From Lepidurus packardi (lineage: Eukaryota > Arthropoda > Branchiopoda > Notostraca > Triopsidae), in the NCBI GenBank assembly GCA_023053545.1, contig JAKZAN010000006.1, positions 3,477,001 to 3,541,000 of the forward strand: a stretch of DNA of 64,000 nucleotides, given 5' to 3'. Below the pieces are notes generated by a model that saw only the letters and a list, made by a program, of their open reading frames with translations, was not told the DNA's origin and did no database searches. The position numbers and the translations under genes were made by a program. Below, one piece after another: positions 3,259 through 42,470 of the stretch. How positions within the stretch are numbered: position 1 is the stretch's first letter; each line of letters begins with the position of its first letter.

Positions 3259-6200
3259 GGTTCCACGGGGTGAAAAGGAAGGACGTGGGCGTCAAGCAAA
3301 CCAAACTACTCAATCTTCGCAAGCTCCGCCTACGAATAATGTCACGGTAAGCTTCTTTTCATGAAATGCGTCTAAGTTTTAATCCCATCTTGGTCATTAG
3401 AACGTGAAAGGCCGTAAAAGAGGAGGCAAAAATTTCGTGACAAGAGAACAGGAGGAAACCATCACATACGGGGTAAGGGGTTATCAAGATGGGGGGCTAT
3501 ATTTTTCCCTATGTAAGTCATTCCAGGTGCCATAAAATGCAAGTAACAGCAGAGGTAGTGGAGGGGGGGCTTCCCGTCATCAAACTTTGGGGCTTAAAAG
3601 TGCAGTTTATATGGCCTTACCCGTTACCAGGGTAACAACTGAATGTAAGAACCTTGCTTATCGATCCGGGAATCCGCCCCTACAATCTACATGTTTCAGT
3701 ACCTTTACATGACTTGTGTAGGAAAAAATAATCAATGAGCGCGTCCACGGATATGTCAGTGTGTTTTTTGCTTCAAGTAAATCTGACTAAATTTCCGTTT
3801 TTTATTTACTAATTAGCAGCAGGCACCTACACCGATGATGCCGTTTTATGGTCAAAATATTGGACCGGATGCAAACATGAACATCCAGGAATCAGCCCAG
3901 TTTCGAGCGACATCGGGAGGAGGTGGTTCCTGGAATCCCCAAGCCCCACCAGCGGACGAGGGAGCTAATGCAGGATGGCCACCTTACCATCAGCCTGCGC
4001 CTAATATGGACGATTCCCATCGCTACGGTGGCACTGGTAACGGCCCTACTGCGCCAGGTTTTGGCGTACCGGGACCTGCGCAAACAACGCTTGGGCCTAA
4101 TGTAGGCGGTTACGCGGGCTTTGCCAGTCCGTCACAAGTCAACGGGGGCGGACCAGGTGGACAACCTCCCAACACTCCAGCCTACATGTCCCAGAGTTTT
4201 GGAGGACCAGGGGATCATTTTACTGCGCCACAAGCTCATTCCCCCCTCCACGGCCACGCCTCCTTTAACCAGCGTCATCACCGACCTAGTCCTGGTCCCC
4301 AGCACCAACAGGCGGGTCAAGCTCAAGGCAATTACAGTCCTCACCCCCACTTATCTCCCCATGCGCAATCGCAACAACCACATCCTTCACCTGGGCCGCT
4401 CCATGTCAACGGGAATCGGTGTAGTAATTTGCCGCATGGTTATATGGAAGTACCTTCTTCCAACGGAGCGTCAATGGCGAGGTAACTTGCAAACGATCCA
4501 AGACAAGAAAAAAAATGTGATACATTGTATCTATCTGTACAGTTACGTAAATGGGAGTCCATATCCGGGAGGACACGCACCCAGTCCGAGTCCTCGCAGC
4601 GGCTCGCAAGCGTCAGCTAATGGCACCGAAGTCAGTAACTCGTCTTCGAGTGGCAATGCAGACGCTAGCAAAGATCTCCAGCCCAGCTATTCGCCTTCTA
4701 ATGCACCCCCGCCCCCAAACTCACAGCCTGGGTACCTGCTCCTTCCACTTCCCCAGCAGAGTTCACTTAACTCTAACGGGTACTCAGGCTCCGTCTTGGG
4801 CACAGGGGACAAGTCGCGTTTGCAACAAACGCAAACACCTCACCAGTCAAACCAACAGGCTTCACCGCCTGAATCCGCTGAAGATCAAACAAAAACAGGT
4901 TCCAGTCGCGAGCAATTGCAACATCGCCTTAAAGAGATGATTCTAAACAAGCAAAGGCAAGGTCAGGTCTCAAGCCAAAACGAGTATCTCACTGAGGACT
5001 ATGCCGCTCATTACGGCCACATGATGACACCGGAAACTACTACCGATCCCCCGTCAGTAGCTACGGAACCACCCGACCCGGGTTCCTCCAATTCCATATC
5101 TTTTAATCTTAATCTCAACTACCAAAATTTGTCCGAAGAAACGCCCCTTTCGTCGGAAGATATGTCTCCTTGCACGCCCATTTCGTCGGCTGCCGACTGC
5201 AATGCCAGTACTAACGCATTGACAACCACTAACCATGCCGGTAATTTTTTAGGGGTCAGCCACCCTCAGGCGTCAGTGTTTAATCACTTAGCTGAGGGTG
5301 GCAATTACTCGGATGAATCCTCTCCGCATTCCCAGACCCTAGCCCCGTCAGACTTGTTAACACCTCCCCTCTCGATCCTTTCTTACCAAGATACACCTAC
5401 AACGATGCGTTTTTTAGACAAAGCCCACCCTCAACCTGAACCCTTTCCCGCGCCCGAGGGTGGGCCCTTGATTCAGCAAGAGTGGGAGCCACAGTTAGAT
5501 TGTGTTAACGACGGAGATGGCTACGTTCAAGGGGGAATACCTACGATAGAAATAGAAAAGAGCAGTGGAGAAAATGTCACAGTATACGATGCACCTGCCA
5601 AAGTATCTACCTCACAAGACCAGTTACATTCGAGCCACATGTCCTTGTCTAATCTTGAGCCTCACAATAACCCACGGGTTCCCAGCCCAAACAAGTCGTT
5701 AGCGATAGCAGCCTCCGAGCAGGAAACCTTTCGAACATCCAGGATAAAATCCTCTCCCGAAATCCAAGTCGCAACTTTTGTTGCACCACCGTGTGAGTGC
5801 CACTTGAATAATAATGGTAACGCTATTAAACCATCTCTATAACTGCACTAACGTAAGCTTGTGTTTATTTTCATGTTTTTTTTTTATGGTTTTCAGCGCC
5901 TGACTCTGGACCCATCTATAGTCAACTTGGGTTTGAGAGCAGTTTCCCTGCCCTTCGACTTCTCATGGAAACTAGATCTGGTCATCGCGGCCACGCGCTT
6001 CGCTTCCACAAGCTCCTTTTCACCAGTAAAGAAGGATCCACGCCTGAAGGTTGTCCGATAGCCAAAACGGTAAACAGCCTGAAATAGAAGTATTTATAAA
6101 GCTTATGATAGCCTTATCTTTTTTTTTTCAAATTGATAGATACTACGTCGCTCCCATCCTGACGAGAAATTTTTGTATCTAATTAAACACCGGGAAGGCC

Positions 6201-8589
6201 ATCACTGTGCCAAAGCGTGGTTAGTAGTCTGTATTGTAGCATGGGAGGGTTTAGCCATGTCAGACGCCGATCTATTGTACGAGCAATTGGTGGCCCAACT
6301 GAATAGTTGTGGCACCCCGACAAACCGCAGTTGTGCTCTGAATGCTACCCAAACGTGTGGCTGTCAAGGCATCGATCCCGAATTGTGTGGAACTTCTTTC
6401 AGCTTTGGCTGTTCGTGGAGCATGTTCTATAATGGGTGCAAGTACGCGCGGAGTAAACAAATAAGAAAATTCAAACTCCGTGAAGTCAGTGAGGTTAGCA
6501 AAAACTAGACCGAACTATTTTAGCGACGTTGTGGGAGGTTTAACAAAAATGCCTTTGACAGGAGACCGCCTTGGAAGAACGTTTGCAAAAATTGGCTACA
6601 ACAACTGCCCCGCTTTATAGACGTCTGGCACCTGAAGCGTACGCCAATCAGACGAGAAGGGAGGATGTTGCTTATGACTGCAGATTGGGATTGAAACCAG
6701 GCAGACCGTTCGCTGGCCTTACAGTTTGTTTGGATTTCTGTGCTCACGCACATAAAGACAAAAATGATATGCCAGACGGATGCGCTGTGGTAAGCTTCCC
6801 CCTCATCCCCCCCTTTTTTTTTCTTCTTTTCTTTAGAACATGTAAATACAGGTGAAAGTTGATAGGCTTTAATAGGATGAAGTTTCGATGATCCCCCGGT
6901 TGCCAAGTTATATATTTTGAAAGGCAATGGACAAAAGGGGAGGGAATAGGGCTTTGGGACTTGTAATTTGTCTGCGGCTAACGAAAATTACCTTGTGGCT
7001 TTGTTGGCGAATCCGAGAAAATTTAAAAAAAAATGTAACCTTGTGCTCTCGTTCCAGATAACAACATTAACCCGGCATCGAGGCTGGTCTTCTCCAGACG
7101 ATGAACAACTTCATGTGTTGCCAACATACACCTTGGACCAAACTTTTGAAGACATTCCGGGAAGCAACTCTTGGTTGCGAGGATGTGGCGCTGTCAATAT
7201 GCTAAACAAGTACGTAAGTGACTTGTACACAGGAAAGCCTGTCAAGACTTCAGGTATGGGAGAGCTTCAGTTTAGATTTCGCACATCTTCCTTGTGTCTT
7301 TCAGTGCGGGTGTAAGTTTGTCTAAGACTTGCTCCACGTCTCAGAATGTTCTACAACCTATGCAAAAAGAATTTAATTTCGTGGACATTTATAAGACTCG
7401 AACTTCTGTTTAACTGTTAATGAAATGAGTAAGACGTTGTAGAGCTCGTTGCTAAACGTCGTCATCCGGTCATGTTATAACTAAATCCGATTGCGCTAGT
7501 GCTAGTTGGAGAAAAGGAAAGTGTCTGGCCAGGAAAAGAGGATAACTTGAATGAAGGCTTTTAAATGTGGGAGGAAAAAAAATTGTTTTTGTTAACTTTT
7601 ATGTAAACAGAAAAGGATTACCAAAAGGTCACGTTCAAAGGATCACATACATAAGAAACTATATCCGACCCTACACAGAATTAAGTATGTGCGCAGATGT
7701 AAGTGAATTGTATATGCCATAAAAACGTAGCTTTTCTATGTCAGTCGTGTAATTTTCATTAGCTTTTATCTAATCGGACCTGTACGTAACTGGATCATTC
7801 TGGTTCCGTCTGATTAAAGTAACAAAAATGTGCATTAAAAGTAGACAAAGCACGAGATTTCGTATCTCGTCAACTTCTTTTTCGGCTTGTCAACAAAGTT
7901 AGTCTCGTAGGCAAAGATAAAGAAAACCCGTCGATTGTGCATGTAAGAAAAGTTCCTGTTTACAAACGAAACACGATACAAATGTTTGCCTTTATTTCGT
8001 TTGTAGATTCCCTGTCGAAGTCCGTACACAAATGGGAGATCGCAAACCAAAGAGGCTTGTGCCAGGCAAAGGCAAAAGCAAAGCTATGGAAGAAAGCGCG
8101 CCGTTGCTTAAGCCTTATGGAGACTCCTTTCTTCCGTTCCCAGTAAACTTACCCCCACAACTACCAAGTTATTCCCCATTTCCGTCAAATTCCGACTGGG
8201 ATCCTTTAGGAGCTTCAAGCGGAGATCCCAGTCATCGAGTGATCCAGCCACCACCTTGGTCACCCTATTCGTCATCGATACATAGGCCTCGACCCCCTAC
8301 ACCGCCTCCGTCACCTACCCCTTACACCATCAGTCATGAGGATAATGAGGAAGTATGTCGAGATGCTAACTTTGGAGGCGTTGGAATTTCCCTAACTCAC
8401 GGCTCGGTTATATTGAAAGTGGCAAGCGCGGAAGTACATGCTACGACAGCACTGAAGAAACCTAATCGCCGTCAGCCAAGCACGATTTCATTAGTATTAC
8501 ACCAGCAGCGAGGCATGGACCGGGCCAAACATGGCGCCGAAGCATGGGAATTTAGATTTCAAAACAAAAATCAGAATAGCAGCCAATGA
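3259..8589 (+). CDS. TET: TET methylcytosine dioxygenase (5' end open)
   Basis: TET enzymes oxidise 5-methylcytosine in nuclear DNA using Fe(II) and 2-oxoglutarate. I read eleven phase-consistent exons: 3259-3345, 3401-3472, 3817-4481, 4543-5816, 5897-6069, 6140-6493, 6562-6789, 7058-7213, 7611-7698, 8007-8142 and 8232-8589, giving at least 1,196 residues. The first 700 residues are Pro/Gln/Ser/Asn-rich and disordered-looking. The Cys-rich region follows ([32 protein letters not shown]), then the first half of the double-stranded beta-helix with the iron motif HKD at codons 6751-6759 and EQLHVLP. A basic and Pro-rich linker of about 110 residues leads to the second half, with NFGGVGI and the last iron histidine in EVHATTAL. 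The first two small exons are less certain than the rest. No CXXC domain is visible. Several substrate- and cofactor-contacting residues differ from human TET2 (see findings). Confidence 0.93.
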
Positions 8590-14800: not shown

Positions 14801-15875
14801 ATTGTTTTATTTTCTATGTTCTTACCCACGACTTGTACTATATGTTTAACCGGTAGCGATAGCTAGAATTCGAACATGATGTAATGTATGTGAGAAGAGC
14901 AGAGAAACGAGCACTCATGCGAAAATTACACAATGTGACCTCAAATGTGACATAAGATTAGCCAGTGAAGACTTAGGAAATGACAGCTCTGTTTTTCGTC
15001 TTTCTACCTAGTTGAGCTAAGGTAATCTTGCAATTGCAGACTCTCATAACTTGGCGGTTAAGTTCTCAAAGTTTGAAAAAACAAAATTTGTTCAACTTTG
15101 TCTATGGCTATTAAGAGGTGCCTAACGTTTAGCCATGTGCCTGGAATGTGACACCTTTTTGTAGCTTTTTTATTGCTTACGAGAAACATTGATTGGATTA
15201 CGAATCCTTCGAGGCATTTACAATGTAACATGTGATACTTGTTAGCTTTCGAAATCCATATCTCACCTTTGCTTGCCTCCTCGTCATCCGAGGCCTCAAT
15301 GGATAGACGATTGCGAGGTATCGGTCACCACTAATGGCCACCATCGTATAAGCGCTGACAAAAACGGAAACTGCCTGCGAGTAATGCACGATTCGACACA
15401 TTACTTCACCAAAGGGCCAATATTGTAAAATAAGTGTGGGCACAAAAGAAAATGGAACGCAAAATAGTGTCATGAGGATGTCACCAGCCGCTAAGTTACT
15501 GATAAAATAGTTGGTCACTGTCCATTTTCGACGAGAACTGAACACGACGGCACACACTAAACCATTACCCAAAAGAGCCAGCACAAACACGACGGAGTAC
15601 AGACAGTAAATGAAAGCTTGAAACACAGGTGACGGCCGGAAGACGTCATTTTCTAGGCTTTCGGATTCAATATGATCGACTACAGCTACTACAATTGTCG
15701 AGGATACGGAATCCAAGACAGCCTGAGATGCGTTCACCGTGACAGTCCCAGATTCAGACAAAGTGGGGTTATACGAGGCGGCTGATGAATTAATCCAGGT
15801 TGCTAAAGAAGTCGGATTAATCCAATAATCCGCCATGGCGTTGTTAACAAGGGATGTTACAGGACATATCGACAA
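11824..15875 (-). CDS. RYa-R: RYamide/luqin-type neuropeptide G-protein-coupled receptor
   Basis: This is a class A peptide receptor of the plasma membrane, closest to arthropod RYamide receptors (NPY-receptor-like). Five exons read on the minus strand, all joined in phase 0: 15875-15267, 14089-13787, 13119-13051, 12760-12623 and 12159-11824, giving about 484 residues. The first exon holds a roughly 85-residue extracellular N-terminus with NSS and NAS glycosylation sites, then TM1-TM3 and the DRY motif in AISGDRYLAIVYPLRPR. The second carries TM4-TM5 and VWGKKTPGEA, characteristic of RYamide receptors. The 69-bp third exon is TM6 (VFVVCWLPLN). The fourth is TM7 with NPLIY. The last is a cytoplasmic tail with a CGC palmitoylation candidate followed by a His/Ser-rich end. 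Intron 1 is 1,177 bp, long for this window. TM6 and TM7 lie in exons too short to stand out. The ligand is inferred from family resemblance. Confidence 0.88.
12896..12913. repeat. Poly-T tract
   Basis: A short T homopolymer inside the receptor gene's third intron (read on the minus strand as poly-A). It is a simple low-complexity tract with no assigned function. Confidence 0.7.
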
Positions 15876-18800
15876 GGGCTACAGAGAAATGTGCTGGCAC
15901 GATCCGTAAATTGCGTTGAACAAACGATGAACTGTTCCCAAAGACTGATTTATCAGAATAGGATTCCCAACTCGATAGTGGAAAAGCTTTGCGCTTATCA
16001 TATCAGCCTCTCGTGTGCCAAGTGAGAAGCATTGCCCATTGCCCAACCAATTCACACATCTTGTTTTCCCATAAGGAATTACACTACAACGTCTAATACA
16101 GCATGTTATCCAACCTGCGGAATGCACTCGGCTATGGGCAACTTTCCAGCGTTCATTTTATCTTTTCCTCCCTCATGTTCAACAAAAGGACGTTCTAATG
16201 ACCAGTAAGCCTTTGCCATAACACTAAGAGGAAAATTAGAGGAGCTCTAATGTGAAAAGAAATCCGGATTTTTCTGCTAGGTGAGACGTGAAGTCCCACA
16301 CCAAAAGCCAAATACCCAGAAAAGGTCGTCTCAAGGGGTAGCCCTAAAGATCGTCACTGTGCGAACTTGGCCAAAGAACGTAAAGCGAACCCAAGAACAT
16401 GGAAAGATTTCTTCGGAATGTGAAGCGCAGCCGCGTACTTCGACGGTTTTCCACGATAATTTGTATCGTGGGGCCAACCGAAAGATCAGCTGAGGTGGGA
16501 AAATCAAGCTGGTGGTACACAGATAAACATTACACTGTACTATTGGTGTCCAACCAATAAACTTGTAGCGATATGGTGTTTTATAACAACAGCTTTGTGG
16601 GGAGGTAAACATTAATCGATTGCTCTATAAGCCGCTATAGCAGTGCAGTATGCGCTCCATACTAAACGAAAGGTAATTACAGCCTTCTGAGTCGTGCCAT
16701 AAAAAAGAATATTAGTCGGCCTCCTTGCTGGTTTAACTACATGGCATATTGACAACTTTTATTATTAGTTCGCTATTACAGCTCCTCCCTTTTCGTTTGC
16801 TGCCTTTTTAATGTTTTTAGCTGAACTCACTTTTGACTCGCGGACAAACTTCGGTCTGTTCTTGGAAGAAGGTGTCTTACAGAAATGAGAGGCGTCGCTT
16901 TTGTGAGCGTCAAAAAAATCAATTATGCATGACGCCCTCTATGCTTGAAACCTTTCATAGTATAGCCCAAGCCGTAGCGAGAAGTGCTTTCTTATTTTAG
17001 CACTATACATGAAAGAGCATAGCTTTATACAAAGGTTCTTAATGGCGTTATAGAATCCGCTCTTAGATCTGATTCTCCAGCAGTCTGGGGCTGTATATGC
17101 CCCATAAACTTCTCTAACCCCTTGAAATACCTTATGACGGCTCTGCGAAGCGTAGAGCTACTTGGGCTACGCAGAATATGTAGCTAACTTTAGGTTCATT
17201 CGAATTTCCTAAGCTTTATAATATCCCCCACCCTGAAGAGCTAGTTATCGCCTTTGCGCATCAAGACAACAATATAATCCTCGAATGGACGGACGACCTC
17301 CCAGTTGCTGATCGACGACCGGAAGTGGCAGACGCAACTACGAGCACCACGCGCCTTTGCTGCCGACAAACCTGATGTTTATTGACGCTAATGTAAAGCT
17401 TCCCTTGCACCCAATCGGGAGAGGGGAAAAAAACCACGTTTTACTAATAGTGATGCTTGCCCTGGTCTCTATACTCTACAGCGTTTACGTTTCACGGTGT
17501 TTAAACTTCACTGGACGTTTTTGTGTACAGACCTTAGTGGGAATGTCTGCCTGAATTTTTCACTAATTGGATTAGAACTCGTGAACGCATGTTTTGAAGC
17601 ACTACATAGCTCACATACCGTTCTGGGGTAAGCCCTGGACCGGAGATAAGGAACGAAGCGTGACACACAATACAAGGCAATTGGAAACTTCGCAGATGCG
17701 GTTTTAAAGCGACAACGAGAGGTTTATAATACCCACCTGATAGAGAGCTCTGCGTCGAGATAAAGCTATAGCTGCATAGCTCATAGCTCGTGCGAGGGGT
17801 GGATTCCAACCTGCATAAAGGAACCTCCAATAAGATTATGCTACAAAGAAAATCAAAAGTAGGAAACTTTTCCGCCCATCACAAAGGCATAGAAAAAAAC
17901 GACATGTAGAATAGAGATAAGCTGCTGCGGATCTCGCCCGGTACCTAACCTTTGCTCCCTTTTCCTGGCCTCACACTCGGGCTAAAAGAACAAGTAATAA
18001 CGCAGACCTCTTATATATACAACGAAGGCATGCCAAGCCCTGAGACCGTCCGTGTGTGGCACACGCACATCTTATCAACATGTCCCGTTTCCTATAAGCT
18101 CTGCCTTTTTTTCTTTTTCCCTCCTGCCAACATCGGACAGCTAGGGATTTACGAGCTTTATCTTCCAGCTTCCACAAGCTATACAGTTGAAAAGGAGAAC
18201 TTCCCTGACGGAGTCCGCAAGCTGGAGGAGGTCCGGTCCAGCCAGTAATGCCTACGGAGTAAAGGGATCGTCCAATTTAAGCACATACACACTTTGGAAA
18301 GGACAATAAACACAAGCGAAGAAATTATGAGAGAAGCATGTTGCTGTATCAGCAACGCTGGCTAAACAGCTCATGTCCGCCAGAGAACGATACATGACTC
18401 ACGGCACTTTCCGATTGTATAATATAGACCTACGCTATTTTTGCTTTGCCTCTAGCGCTGTACTACACCCCATAGTTACCCTATCGTTCAGGGATTTCTA
18501 CAAGCCCTGCACAAGTATCGCTAGTTTTATTTACGTTCTCCAACTTTTCATTAAAGTTGCAGGCAACATATTCTGTGTTTGCTTCCGGGTTCTCCTCAAC
18601 TTATATTTGAAAGAGCTGACTATAAACGACTGAAGTCGAAATACCAAACTTTTCAGTTCTTCCGGCTGACCTGTCGAAATAAAGATACACAGGTCTTATT
18701 GCTGGTCGCTGACTTTAAAAAATGTTGTCGTTCTGGCAATACTTAACACGATTTTTGACGTTTTTAAGAGTACTTCCTCGCCATCGGAATTCGCAATGAC

Positions 18801-20503: not shown

Positions 20504-21882
20504 TCATGCATTTTTCCGGCGCAAGATGTCCGCATCTACCGCTCGCGAAGTTCTGGAAGGGGCGCGGTCATGGCTCTTATTCCTATCCATGTATGCCTTG
20601 TAAAAGAACCGCGCGAAAAGGACGAAATACGAAAAGTACATAAGCAGAGAAAGCTTGATGTTCTGCTGGCTAACGTGACAACCGTCTCCCCGCTCTATCA
20701 ACTGTGAAATAGGACAAATAGCGTCACAAAATTGCAAAGTAATTCAGCATTAAAAATACCTGATACGCCCATACGTTTACAGCGCAGCCCGCTACCATCT
20801 GAATAAGTTGGGCAGTAGTAATGACCATGGCTATGCCTTTGGGTATTTTAAATTGCAACGCTCGGAGAGCATAATACGTGTACATCATAGAATGTACGAC
20901 ATAGTTCATCACAATGAACCAGCGAGCTGGAGCGGTGTACTCGGCAAAAGCGTACCACGAGTACAATAAGACCGTGGCGTGATGATACCAGTGGAGGAAG
21001 ATGAGCGGCTGTTTACGCAAGACGATGAAGATTGTGTCTCCCAACTCCGGAACTTTGGACAAGACAAACATCCAGGTCCAAAAACCCGATACTTTATTGT
21101 GCTGAATAAAACTACGGAAAACCGGGAAAAATGCAACATGTCTAATTTAGTCTCATTCTTCAAATGTGCCCTACGTGTATGAACCCATATCCAGCTAATA
21201 ATAGCGTGTCAAACACGCACACACAAAACCAGTCTTCTCAGTTCAGGAGAAAGTGAAGTAGCCTCTTTCCCTTTATCGACAGACTAACATGACAAGCAAT
21301 GCGTAAGCCACGCCCGCTATACACGAGTTCGAAACGAAAGACGTCCTTCTCGGTCGATACGAACCCACTGCAATCTTACCACATGCCATGCCGACTGTAG
21401 GCAAGACACAGTCGCTTTTGGATGACTTCAATAAAGCACTAAATGGAAGCCAGAGTATGTAACCACGAAGGGGGTTATGTAGAGATGGCCATGCTGCTAT
21501 AGTTATATATTGCCAAGCTGCAACACATACATTTAGAGAAGAAATAACAAATAAAATACCTGGGCACGCAGACCGAGTGATAGATACCATGGTGCCGAAG
21601 CACGTGGAAGAACTCCGGTACCGTTCTACATGCTCCCATGATGCTGAAGACTGCCAAAAACACGTTCCAAAATACGAGGGGGCCTCTCAGCTCAAAACGG
21701 GGTCGATCGGCCATCCACTGCTGACCCCCAAAGATTAAGAGCATATAAGCGCCCACGTAGTAGAAACACACTGTCCAATGCTGGGACATCCATGAGCGCA
21801 CATCAGTGTGTTGAAAATCCTCCTCAAACTGGAACACGTACGAATAGTTCGGCGAAGTGACAACCGTGTCCAAGGAATTCAT
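20504..21882 (-). CDS. ELOVL6: ELOVL6-type very-long-chain fatty acid elongase
   Basis: The product is the condensing enzyme of the ER fatty-acid elongation cycle, adding malonyl-CoA to C12-C16 acyl-CoAs. Exons on the minus strand are 21882-21560, 21111-20760 and 20701-20504, giving 290 residues (human ELOVL6 has 265). Diagnostic features are [15 protein letters not shown], the catalytic histidine box HWYHH followed by [23 protein letters not shown], and the late TM segment [19 protein letters not shown]. Several hydrophobic segments agree with a polytopic membrane protein. The first junction joins SVCVP to [12 protein letters not shown], which matches the family once the acceptor next to 21112 is used; a nearer acceptor at 21102 would require a poor donor. 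The C-terminus is basic (LRRKN). ELOVL6 is the closest remembered subfamily, as in insect Baldspot-like enzymes. Confidence 0.92.
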
Positions 21883-31598: not shown

Positions 31599-32636
<1,038 letters not shown>

Positions 32637-36951: not shown

Positions 36952-38607
<1,656 letters not shown>

Positions 38608-40772: not shown

Positions 40773-42470
40773 TCAGGAGCCTTCTGATACATGGTCGGTC
40801 CAAGCCTGATGCTGCGTCGGCTCGGCCAGAGAAGTGGCTAAAGTTAGCATGGCTGGGTTTTGTGTGTCGAGAGTTGGTTCCGTAACATTTTCCGGTCGAA
40901 TGGCACCGAGTTGATTATGCTGGGCTGTGCGTAAGCCTGTTTTACGCTCAGGAGGTCTTCCTGTGTTGGGAAATTCGGGTTTCCACGTGGGAGCTTGACA
41001 GCAGACAACCGAGTCACAGCAGGAATCGCGAAAATCTTTCATAGCTTTACGCATGGGATCGCTTATCAGGACATAGAAACATGGGTTTATCGCCGTAGCG
41101 AGCGCAGATAGGTATACGAAAATCGTGCGTACCATCATAGTTACAGCGTTGGCATTCACTTGGCCCGTCATACTGAGCACAGCGAATATCCAGTTGGGCA
41201 TCCGGCAAATGAAAAAGGTGATAACTAGTGCAATGAGAGATTTTACCACTTTTTTCTTGCGATCAGTTTGGTTCCGGTATTGTTGGCAGTTATGGAGCAT
41301 GTTAGGAGCTAAGCTGCTAACCGGTTTTCGTACCCATAAAAAATGGGCAATTTTGAAGTATAGGATGAGATAGACAAAGAACAAGGGAATGAATATGAAA
41401 CAGCAGAGAAACACGTAGTAGACAGAGGCAAATTCCGGATCCGATTCCTTTAGATCCAAATTCTGTGTACAGATGGGCATTACGGTACAAAAATCGATGG
41501 TAATGGGATGGCTGGTTACATTGACTAAGAGGAAGGTGTACTGCTCCCAGACTTGTATGGTAGGGCCTGCTAATCCAAACGCCAGCAACCAGGCAAGACT
41601 CAGTATTAAGAAAACAAGATCTGCCCTACGTAACAATCCTGGATCCAAAACATGCACGACTCCCAGATAACGATCGTACGCGATGAAACAGAGCATTAGC
41701 GCGTTAGCTATGAGAGCTGCACTTTGCAGAAACGGCAAAACTCTGCAGCCGCTCTGTCCAAAAACCTGTTTGGGGAGAGTGTCATTATAATAAGCACTAT
41801 AGAAACCCGTTATCTATATATTACCCATGTCTCGGAAGAGCGATTGGCTACTGTGGATATTTCGGGAGGTACGGTAACGCATACAAAAAGCAGGTCGCTA
41901 AGTGCCAACCCGGTCAGAAGCAGGTTCGTTGAAGTCCATCGTGAACTGTTTGTTGGAAGTCGGCAAAGGGGGAAAAAGGTACATGGACATTGTTGACGGT
42001 CTATCTGTTTTAAGCTTTGTAAGCATCTGTATACCGTTGTGAAGCGATAGCGAGGCAGGTGTGGGCGTTTGATAGAACACTCCATGCCATGGTAGCTACG
42101 AAAAGCGCTGTGAAAATAACACGGAACCAGAGAGGATAAGGTATAGCCCAGCTGGCAAGGAAGATGCCATCTACGTCAAGCCACTCCAGAATGCTTTGAT
42201 ACATATCTGTGCCGTTTGTAGTCACGGCCGGCAGAAGCTTTATTTTAACGTAAAACATTTTAACATGTTTTTATACATCTTTCGTTATGTTCTACTCACA
42301 TTGCTTCCGAACGCAAGTGTTTGGATGGCTTCATTGTGAATGGTTTCATTGTGCTGAAATGCACAAAGCAAGTCCCGACTAATGTTAAAAATAGAAAAGC
42401 TTAAATCGGACGTGGAATCCTGAAATTTTAATAAGGGCTCCATGGGCTGTGAAGTTGGAAACACGATCAT
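40773..42470 (-). CDS. Orphan class A G-protein-coupled receptor
   Basis: Four exons on the minus strand (42470-42300, 42237-42035, 41945-41825, 41765-40773) join in phase to 495 residues. The extracellular N-terminus of about 85 residues has N-glycosylation sites (NIS, NET, NGT). TM1 is around FTALFVATMAWSVLS, TM2 is LLLTGLALSDLLFVCVTVPP, and TM3 has the conserved cysteine (GQSGCRVLPF) and DRY (CFIAYDRYLGVVHV). TM6 reads FFICRMPNWIF, lacking the usual CWLP, and TM7 has NPCFY in place of NPxxY's usual form. A Cys-rich patch (DSCCDSVVCC) near the end of helix 8 suggests palmitoylation, and the 90-residue tail is Pro/Thr-rich. I recognise a rhodopsin-type, peptide-like receptor but cannot name a ligand. 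The start ATG is the first in frame, and an upstream coding exon cannot be excluded. Confidence 0.82.

What the first reader, a model, noticed from the sequence alone, without database searches (positions are those of the whole stretch)
6751..8508. TET with intact iron ligands but altered cofactor- and 5mC-contacting residues
Seen: His and Asp of HKD (6751-6759) and the distal His in EVHATTAL are kept. Aligned by eye to human TET2, the codon at 8482-8484 is Thr where TET2 has Arg1896 (2-oxoglutarate carboxylate), 8500-8502 is His for Tyr1902, 8506-8508 is Gln for His1904, and 6766-6768 is Asp for Asn1387. Known, from memory of human TET2 structures and mutants: these positions bind 2-oxoglutarate or the flipped 5mC, and the Thr1372-Tyr1902 contact supports oxidation beyond 5hmC. 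Inference: the enzyme may be weak, have altered substrate choice, or stop at 5hmC, or have a non-catalytic role.
Basis: partly seen in the sequence, partly recalled or inferred. Interest (0 to 1): 0.75.

Follow-up and report, generated by a model that had tools for sequence, protein, structure and literature searches.

The report
TET protein lacking its 2-oxoglutarate arginine
An animal, probably an arthropod, that seems to have lost the enzymes that methylate DNA still carries one well-preserved TET gene, but the protein has lost the arginine that grips its co-substrate and other residues that hold methylcytosine, so it may be a natural 'TET without TET chemistry'.

Summary
The residue observation is confirmed. 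The window holds a TET gene with an open reading frame and no other copy detected; a CXXC finger lies just upstream of the window. Its spliced catalytic region is 48% identical to human TET2 (197 of 414 aligned positions). Iron ligands (H1382, D1384, H1881), R1261, H1416, S1898 and T1372 are kept. N1387 is Asp, but Asp is native there in Naegleria TET1 and algal CMD1, so that point is weak.

R1896 is described as strictly conserved and TET2 R1896S is used as a catalytic mutant. No alternative last exon with Arg was found. New context: DNMT2 is the only DNMT-family match over cut-off outside bacterial- or phage-looking contigs; SRA, DNMT1-RFD and CDCA7-type searches gave nothing (no positive control); CpG is little depleted.

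Best reading: after loss of DNA methylation the protein is kept for DNA/chromatin binding while its 2OG-dependent 5mC chemistry is lost or nearly lost. Not shown: enzymology, expression, other arthropod sequences. New variant of a known kind.

The parts
3817..4481 (+). TET N-terminal low-complexity coding exon (start approximate)
   Evidence: open 222-aa frame; donor ...GCGAG|gtaact in the sequence; its last two bases are carried into 4543-5816
4543..5816 (+). TET coding exon leading into the Cys-rich region (ends [10 protein letters not shown])
   Evidence: open frame and splice sites
5897..6069 (+). TET Cys-rich exon (GPIYSQLG...GCPIAKT)
   Evidence: aligned to TET2; splice sites
6140..6493 (+). 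TET Cys-rich exon ([21 protein letters not shown]; keeps R1261, W1291, M1293)
6562..6789 (+). DSBH exon with HKD (H1382, D1384), T1372 kept, N1387D, T1393A
   Evidence: Pfam Tet_JBP
7058..7209 (+). DSBH exon with DEQLHVLP (H1416 kept); an in-frame alternative ends at 7253
8007..8589 (+). last exon: low-complexity insert, then [26 protein letters not shown] and TGA (H1881, S1898, H1912 kept; R1896T, Y1902H, H1904Q); alternative acceptor gives start 8021, same frame
8482..8484 (+). Thr codon ACG at the TET2 Arg1896 position (2OG C5-carboxylate anchor)
   Evidence: role
8500..8502 (+). His codon CAC at the TET2 Tyr1902 position (stacks on 5mC)
   Evidence: role
8506..8508 (+). Gln codon CAG at the TET2 His1904 position (H-bond to 5mC)
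   Evidence: role
6766..6768 (+). Asp codon GAT at the TET2 Asn1387 position (Asp is native in NgTet1 and CMD1)

Best explanation
This is the only TET orthologue detected in the genome of an animal, probably an arthropod, in which only DNMT2 of the DNA-methyltransferase family was found. A CXXC finger, the Cys-rich region, the listed DNA-contact residues and the iron site are retained. The 2-oxoglutarate C5-carboxylate anchor (R1896T) and much of the methylcytosine clamp (Y1902H, H1904Q, T1393A) have changed. Most likely the protein no longer works, or barely works, as a 2OG-dependent 5mC oxidase and is kept as a DNA/chromatin-binding regulator. Shown here: the substitutions, the open gene, no second copy detected, DNMT1/3-type domains not detected, CpG little depleted. 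Inferred: loss of activity (from mutants of homologous enzymes) and the scaffold role (from Drosophila TET).
For: Residues. R1896/R289 strictly conserved for the 2OG C5-carboxylate; CMD1, which lacks a working basic residue there, cannot use 2OG. CcTet R385A dead; TET2 R1896S a catalytic mutant. Divergence is uneven: 6 of 10 listed 2OG/5mC pocket positions changed against 1 of 22 listed iron, zinc and DNA-contact positions (Fisher p = 0.0014; non-conservative changes only, 4 of 10 against 0 of 22, p = 0.006; lists partly recalled and drawn up after seeing the alignment). Methylation machinery: DNMT2 is the only match over cut-off outside contigs that look bacterial or phage; no SRA, DNMT1-RFD or CDCA7-type finger match. 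CpG o/e 0.90 in the window, 0.77-1.03 by 4 kb; 0.92-1.06 in 9 of 12 further loci. CXXC finger with 8 Cys upstream. Precedent: Drosophila TET acts mainly catalysis-independently, with PRC1 (passages of PMC11068012); [quoted passage not shown]
Against: No activity, binding or expression data. The iron triad and three of four listed 2OG contacts (R1261, H1416, S1898) remain, so residual activity is possible. Drosophila also lacks 5mC DNA methyltransferases, yet its TET catalytic domain strongly depletes 5mC within a minute in vitro, so losing DNA methylation does not by itself predict a decayed site. In fungal transposon-encoded TET/JBPs only the H, D/E, H iron ligands are marked as common to all three groups (figure legend of PMC12730594), so the Arg may be less universal than claimed. 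No other arthropod TET could be aligned (searches found none). The SRA, RFD and CDCA7 searches rang in no control genome, so the tool says they do not show absence. MBD-domain matches are present. Pocket positions change no more than the rest of the alignment (6 of 10 against 210 of 382, p = 1), which also fits relaxed constraint.
Confidence: 0.5

Rival explanations
1. Still a working 2OG dioxygenase with weakened 2OG affinity, acting on RNA m5C (tRNA/mRNA sites from DNMT2 and NSUN enzymes); other residues partly replace R1896.
For: Iron triad, R1261, H1416, S1898, T1372 kept; Asp at 1387 is native in NgTet1 and CMD1; RNA m5C writers: DNMT2 and NSUN-type matches, 8 of 12 stretches on C1, C3, C5 and C6. 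The H1904 position is Arg in CcTet, so this site tolerates change.
Against: Arg-to-Ala in CcTet and Arg-to-Ser in TET2 remove activity; I see no new basic residue at an obvious pocket position by sequence, but no structure was modelled; Y1902H and H1904Q should also weaken base holding (inference).
Confidence: 0.25
2. Relaxed gene on its way to loss: the C-terminal half drifts after DNA methylation was lost.
For: Pocket positions change no less than the rest of the alignment (6 of 10 against 210 of 382); each substitution is reachable by one base change (inference from the codons).
Against: No frameshift or stop in the 921 residues of the joined model from exon 4543 on, with the splice sites I chose; H1881-A-T-T1884, P1889-N-R1891 and I1897-S-L-V1900 are identical to TET2; CXXC finger has all 8 Cys.
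Confidence: 0.13
3. Changed chemistry: different co-substrate or different base, by analogy with CMD1 (vitamin C) or CcTet (6mA).
For: CMD1 lacks a working basic residue for the 2OG C5-carboxylate and uses vitamin C; position 1393 (Ala here) is the CcTet Asp337 position that affects 5mC and 6mA use.
Against: The CMD1 Trp358 position, by my spacing from Thr354/T1393, is Thr1397 here and in TET2; CcTet 6mA use is tied to Gly at the 1387 position, here Asp, a side chain said to block 6mA.
Confidence: 0.06
4. Ordinary, fully active TET; the positions vary harmlessly in this lineage.
For: Overall good conservation (407 bits).
Against: Honeybee TET, shown active, keeps the Rx5a signature (passages of PMC4150289), which here reads Tx5H; mutant data.
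Confidence: 0.06

Closest known systems
Human TET2 catalytic domain (PDB 5d9y, 4nm6)
   Same: Cys-rich plus split DSBH architecture, iron triad, R1261, H1416, S1898, T1372; 197 of 414 aligned positions identical
   Different: R1896T, Y1902H, H1904Q, N1387D, T1393A, V1395I, Y1294F among 217 differing positions
Honeybee TET (AmTET)
   Same: single arthropod TET with CXXC, HxD and Hxs motifs
   Different: AmTET keeps the Rx5a 2OG signature and makes 5hmC (passages); honeybee retains DNA methylation
Drosophila TET
   Same: CXXC-containing TET in a genome without 5mC DNA methyltransferases; largely catalysis-independent in vivo
   Different: Drosophila TET catalytic domain is a fast 5mC oxidase in vitro; here the 2OG anchor is gone
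Chlamydomonas CMD1
   Same: TET homologue without a working basic residue for the 2OG C5-carboxylate; Asp at the N1387 position
   Different: CMD1 has an aligned Arg410 that points away, Trp358 fills the space, and it keeps a 5mC-stacking Phe
Coprinopsis CcTet
   Same: TET fold; divergent residues at the 1387 and 1393 positions
   Different: CcTet has Arg385 and Phe391

Membership tests
TET (animal) by homology | Tet_JBP domain over curated cut-off and Cys-rich region matching TET2 | tested here: met
   139.2 bits against cut-off 34.9; 407 bits to TET2 chains
TET (animal) by homology | TET-type CXXC finger in the same gene | tested here: inconclusive
   PF02008 match ending about 1.8 kb before the window, same strand, 8 Cys; that it belongs to the same transcript is inferred and the label 'TET-type' is recalled
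Fe(II)/2OG dioxygenase | HxD...H iron triad | tested here: met
Fe(II)/2OG dioxygenase | 2OG signature Rx5a / basic residue for the C5-carboxylate | tested here: not met
   Thr at 1896, His at 1902; signature, role
5mC oxidase | aromatic stacker (Tyr/Phe) and His/Arg hydrogen-bond donor for 5mC | tested here: not met
   His and Gln at these positions; roles
5mC oxidase | catalytic activity on 5mC | not testable with these tools
   needs purified protein
Bifunctional 5mC/6mA TET (CcTet-like) | Gly at the N1387 position with Asp at the T1393 position | tested here: not met
   Asp and Ala (criterion)

The most novel reading that the evidence does not exclude
An arthropod lineage has turned its only TET into a pseudo-dioxygenase: catalysis was dispensed with after DNA methylation was lost, while the CXXC finger and the DNA-gripping shell were kept by selection, which would make it a natural test of the catalysis-independent role of TET. 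Bolder still: the iron site survives because it now takes another co-substrate.
Probability: 0.35. Interest if true: 0.85.

Novelty: new variant of a known kind. Interest (0 to 1): 0.62.

Why it matters
Why animals that lost DNA methylation keep TET is an open question. [quoted passage not shown] A lineage where the co-substrate anchor itself is gone would show that selection can keep TET without its chemistry, and would help separate scaffold from enzyme functions. I saw no report of such an animal TET in the listings of searches; these cover only open-licence papers, show capped lists and were not exhaustive.

Tried and rejected
N1387D as evidence of damage: rejected, Asp is native in NgTet1 and CMD1. 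Alternative last exon or paralogue with Arg: not found. CcTet-like 6mA use: rejected on residue criteria. Host DNMT1/DNMT3 among the other PF00145 matches: rejected by my reading, not by proof. Six of the 9 stretches, on C42, C52 and C60, are in uninterrupted frames of 370-512 aa; I checked G+C of three of those six loci (L005, L006, L010: 0.32-0.36) and read them as bacterial. The two pieces on C344 lie in DNA of G+C 0.59 whose frames look phage-like to me; I printed only the strand opposite to the match, so the matched frame itself was not read. One further C1 stretch at E 0.71 is below cut-off. The first splice model (donor 7254, exon start 8021) was replaced as preferred by 7210/8007, because 8007 has the better pyrimidine tract (15 against 12 of 19) and the joint reads FPVEVR, like a stretch of TET1/TET3 that I recall; the donors score alike (5 each), the two models score equally against TET2 (407.0 and 407.4 bits) and give the same last-exon frame. 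A short open stretch at 7611-7698 was considered as an exon and left out. Looking for other TETs with exon 6140-6493 gave 7 pattern stretches in viral contigs and 330 in genome contigs, none confirmed as a relative. No structure was predicted: the spliced protein is not a colinear translation of the window, so I did not hand it in.

Full report
Observation. HMMER aligns the two key stretches to human TET2 without gaps and the spliced catalytic region at 407 bits, E about 1e-120. Numbered from H1382 and H1881, 197 of 414 aligned positions are identical. R1896 is Thr, Y1902 His, H1904 Gln, N1387 Asp. Kept are H1382, D1384, H1881, R1261, H1416, S1898, T1372; the Cys/His that I recall as zinc ligands (C1133, C1135, C1193, H1219, C1221, C1271, C1273, C1289, C1298, C1358, H1380, H1912); and S1290, W1291, M1293, Y1295, K1299, S1303.

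Gene. Catalytic exons 5897-6069, 6140-6493, 6562-6789, 7058-7209 and 8007-8589 splice in frame to a TGA at 8587-8589, with an open exon 4543-5816 before them. The last intron has a second in-frame solution (7254/8021); both give the same last-exon reading frame. A CXXC finger with eight cysteines lies on the same strand, ending about 1.8 kb before the window start; that it belongs to this transcript is inferred. The window protein and the human TET2 last exon each match only this locus in the 108.6 Mb assembly, up to E 10. The third (same residues in an active arthropod TET) could not be tested by alignment; honeybee TET, active in cells, is reported to keep Rx5a (passages of PMC4150289).

What the residues do. 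From PMC7854593 (section 11, part 1 of 2, read): Arg1261 and Arg1896 each hold one carboxylate of the 2OG analogue and are strictly conserved; CMD1, lacking a basic residue for the C5-carboxylate, cannot use 2OG; 5mC is held by Asp/Asn at 1387 and His at 1904 and stacked by Tyr/Phe at 1902. From PMC11040006 (section 15 read; passages): CcTet Arg385 is highly conserved and R385A is dead; the 1387 position is Asp in NgTet1 and CMD1; the 1393 position affects 5mC binding. That Arg385 equals R1896 is my inference from the spacing to Phe391/Tyr1902; the paper numbers the two carboxylates the other way round. From PMC11574621 (passages): TET2 R1896S serves as catalytic mutant. From PMC12830177 (passages): stalling at 5hmC/5fC comes from T1372 and T1372/Y1902 changes. 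Hence N1387D says little, and R1896T with H1904Q argues for general loss of function, not for stalling. Against: in fungal transposon-encoded TET/JBPs only the iron ligands are marked as common to all groups (figure legend of PMC12730594).

Pattern. Of ten 2OG/5mC pocket positions (R1261, T1372, N1387, T1393, V1395, H1416, R1896, S1898, Y1902, H1904) six differ; of 22 iron, zinc and DNA-contact positions (those listed as kept above other than the pocket ones, plus Y1294) one differs (Fisher p 0.0014). A first version left out Y1294F (0 of 21, p 0.0003); the corrected figure is the one to use. Other printed changes such as R1262S, E1268T, R1269Q and R1383K were put in neither list. The lists rest partly on memory of the TET2 structure and were drawn up after seeing the alignment, so the p values are descriptive. 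Pocket positions change at the rate of the remaining 382 (6 of 10 against 210 of 382, p 1.0); what stands out is the conserved scaffold (1 of 22, p 2e-6).

Genomic context. PF00145 gave 9 matched stretches at E 0.001. One, on 14-Mb contig C1, is DNMT2 (150 bits to PDB 4h0n). The other 8 are on C42, C52, C60 and C344 and look bacterial or phage to me (see Tried and rejected for what was not checked). A rerun to E 10 added one stretch below cut-off. SRA, DNMT1-RFD and the CDCA7-type finger gave no match, but nothing rang in the control genomes either, so absence is not shown. Three CXXC matches exist: this gene, one that I read as CFP1-like from memory (L022), and one not read in its matched frame (L021). 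CpG o/e is 0.90 in the window, 0.77-1.03 by 4 kb, 0.83 in TET exons. Of 12 further loci measured, 9 lie at 0.92-1.06 and 3 that hold COX1 stretches at 0.56-0.84. RNA m5C writers exist: DNMT2, and NSUN-type matches, 8 of 12 stretches on C1, C3, C5 and C6. MBD matches are present, 5 stretches, so MBD alone is no guide. PMC8821070 (passages) reports arthropod groups without detectable DNMT1 and DNMT3, for example four Mesostigmata and one isopod.

Mechanism. The best-supported reading is a TET kept for DNA/chromatin binding after its substrate disappeared, with 2OG-dependent 5mC oxidation lost or very weak. Precedent for function without catalysis is Drosophila TET with PRC1 (passages of PMC11068012); but Drosophila TET remains a fast 5mC oxidase in vitro (passages of PMC10735219), which is both the contrast that makes this case interesting and an argument that substrate loss alone need not erode the site. 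A weak RNA m5C oxidase is the main rival. Not shown: expression, activity, selection, species identity, or conservation of the change in relatives.

Noticed in passing
G000 C1, C2, C4, C5, C6 (L016, L018, L020): Many COX1 stretches with TGA and other stops sit in multi-megabase contigs, suggesting abundant mitochondrial DNA inserts.
   Followed up: partly
G000 C42, C52, C60, C214, C344 (L005-L008, L010-L014): The assembly holds contigs that look bacterial or phage-like; C52 and C60 carry a like pair of cytosine methyltransferases, with an identical score for one (286.9 bits) and near-identical scores for the other (86.2 and 87.4).
   Followed up: partly
L009 (C1:7269171-7273202): A DNMT2 gene, the only DNMT-family match over cut-off outside the bacterial- or phage-looking contigs.
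   Followed up: yes
L024 (C4) and L025 (C37): MBD-domain matches exist although DNMT1/DNMT3 were not detected.
   Followed up: partly
window 31599-32018 (+), 37867-38604 (+), 20727-21146 (-), 40776-41813 (-), 15201-15878 (-): Neighbouring genes: PCNA, a MOZ/SAS acetyltransferase, a fatty-acid elongase and two rhodopsin-type GPCRs.
   Followed up: no
window 7210-8020: The last TET intron has two in-frame donor/acceptor pairs and a short open stretch at 7611-7698, so isoforms are possible there.
   Followed up: partly
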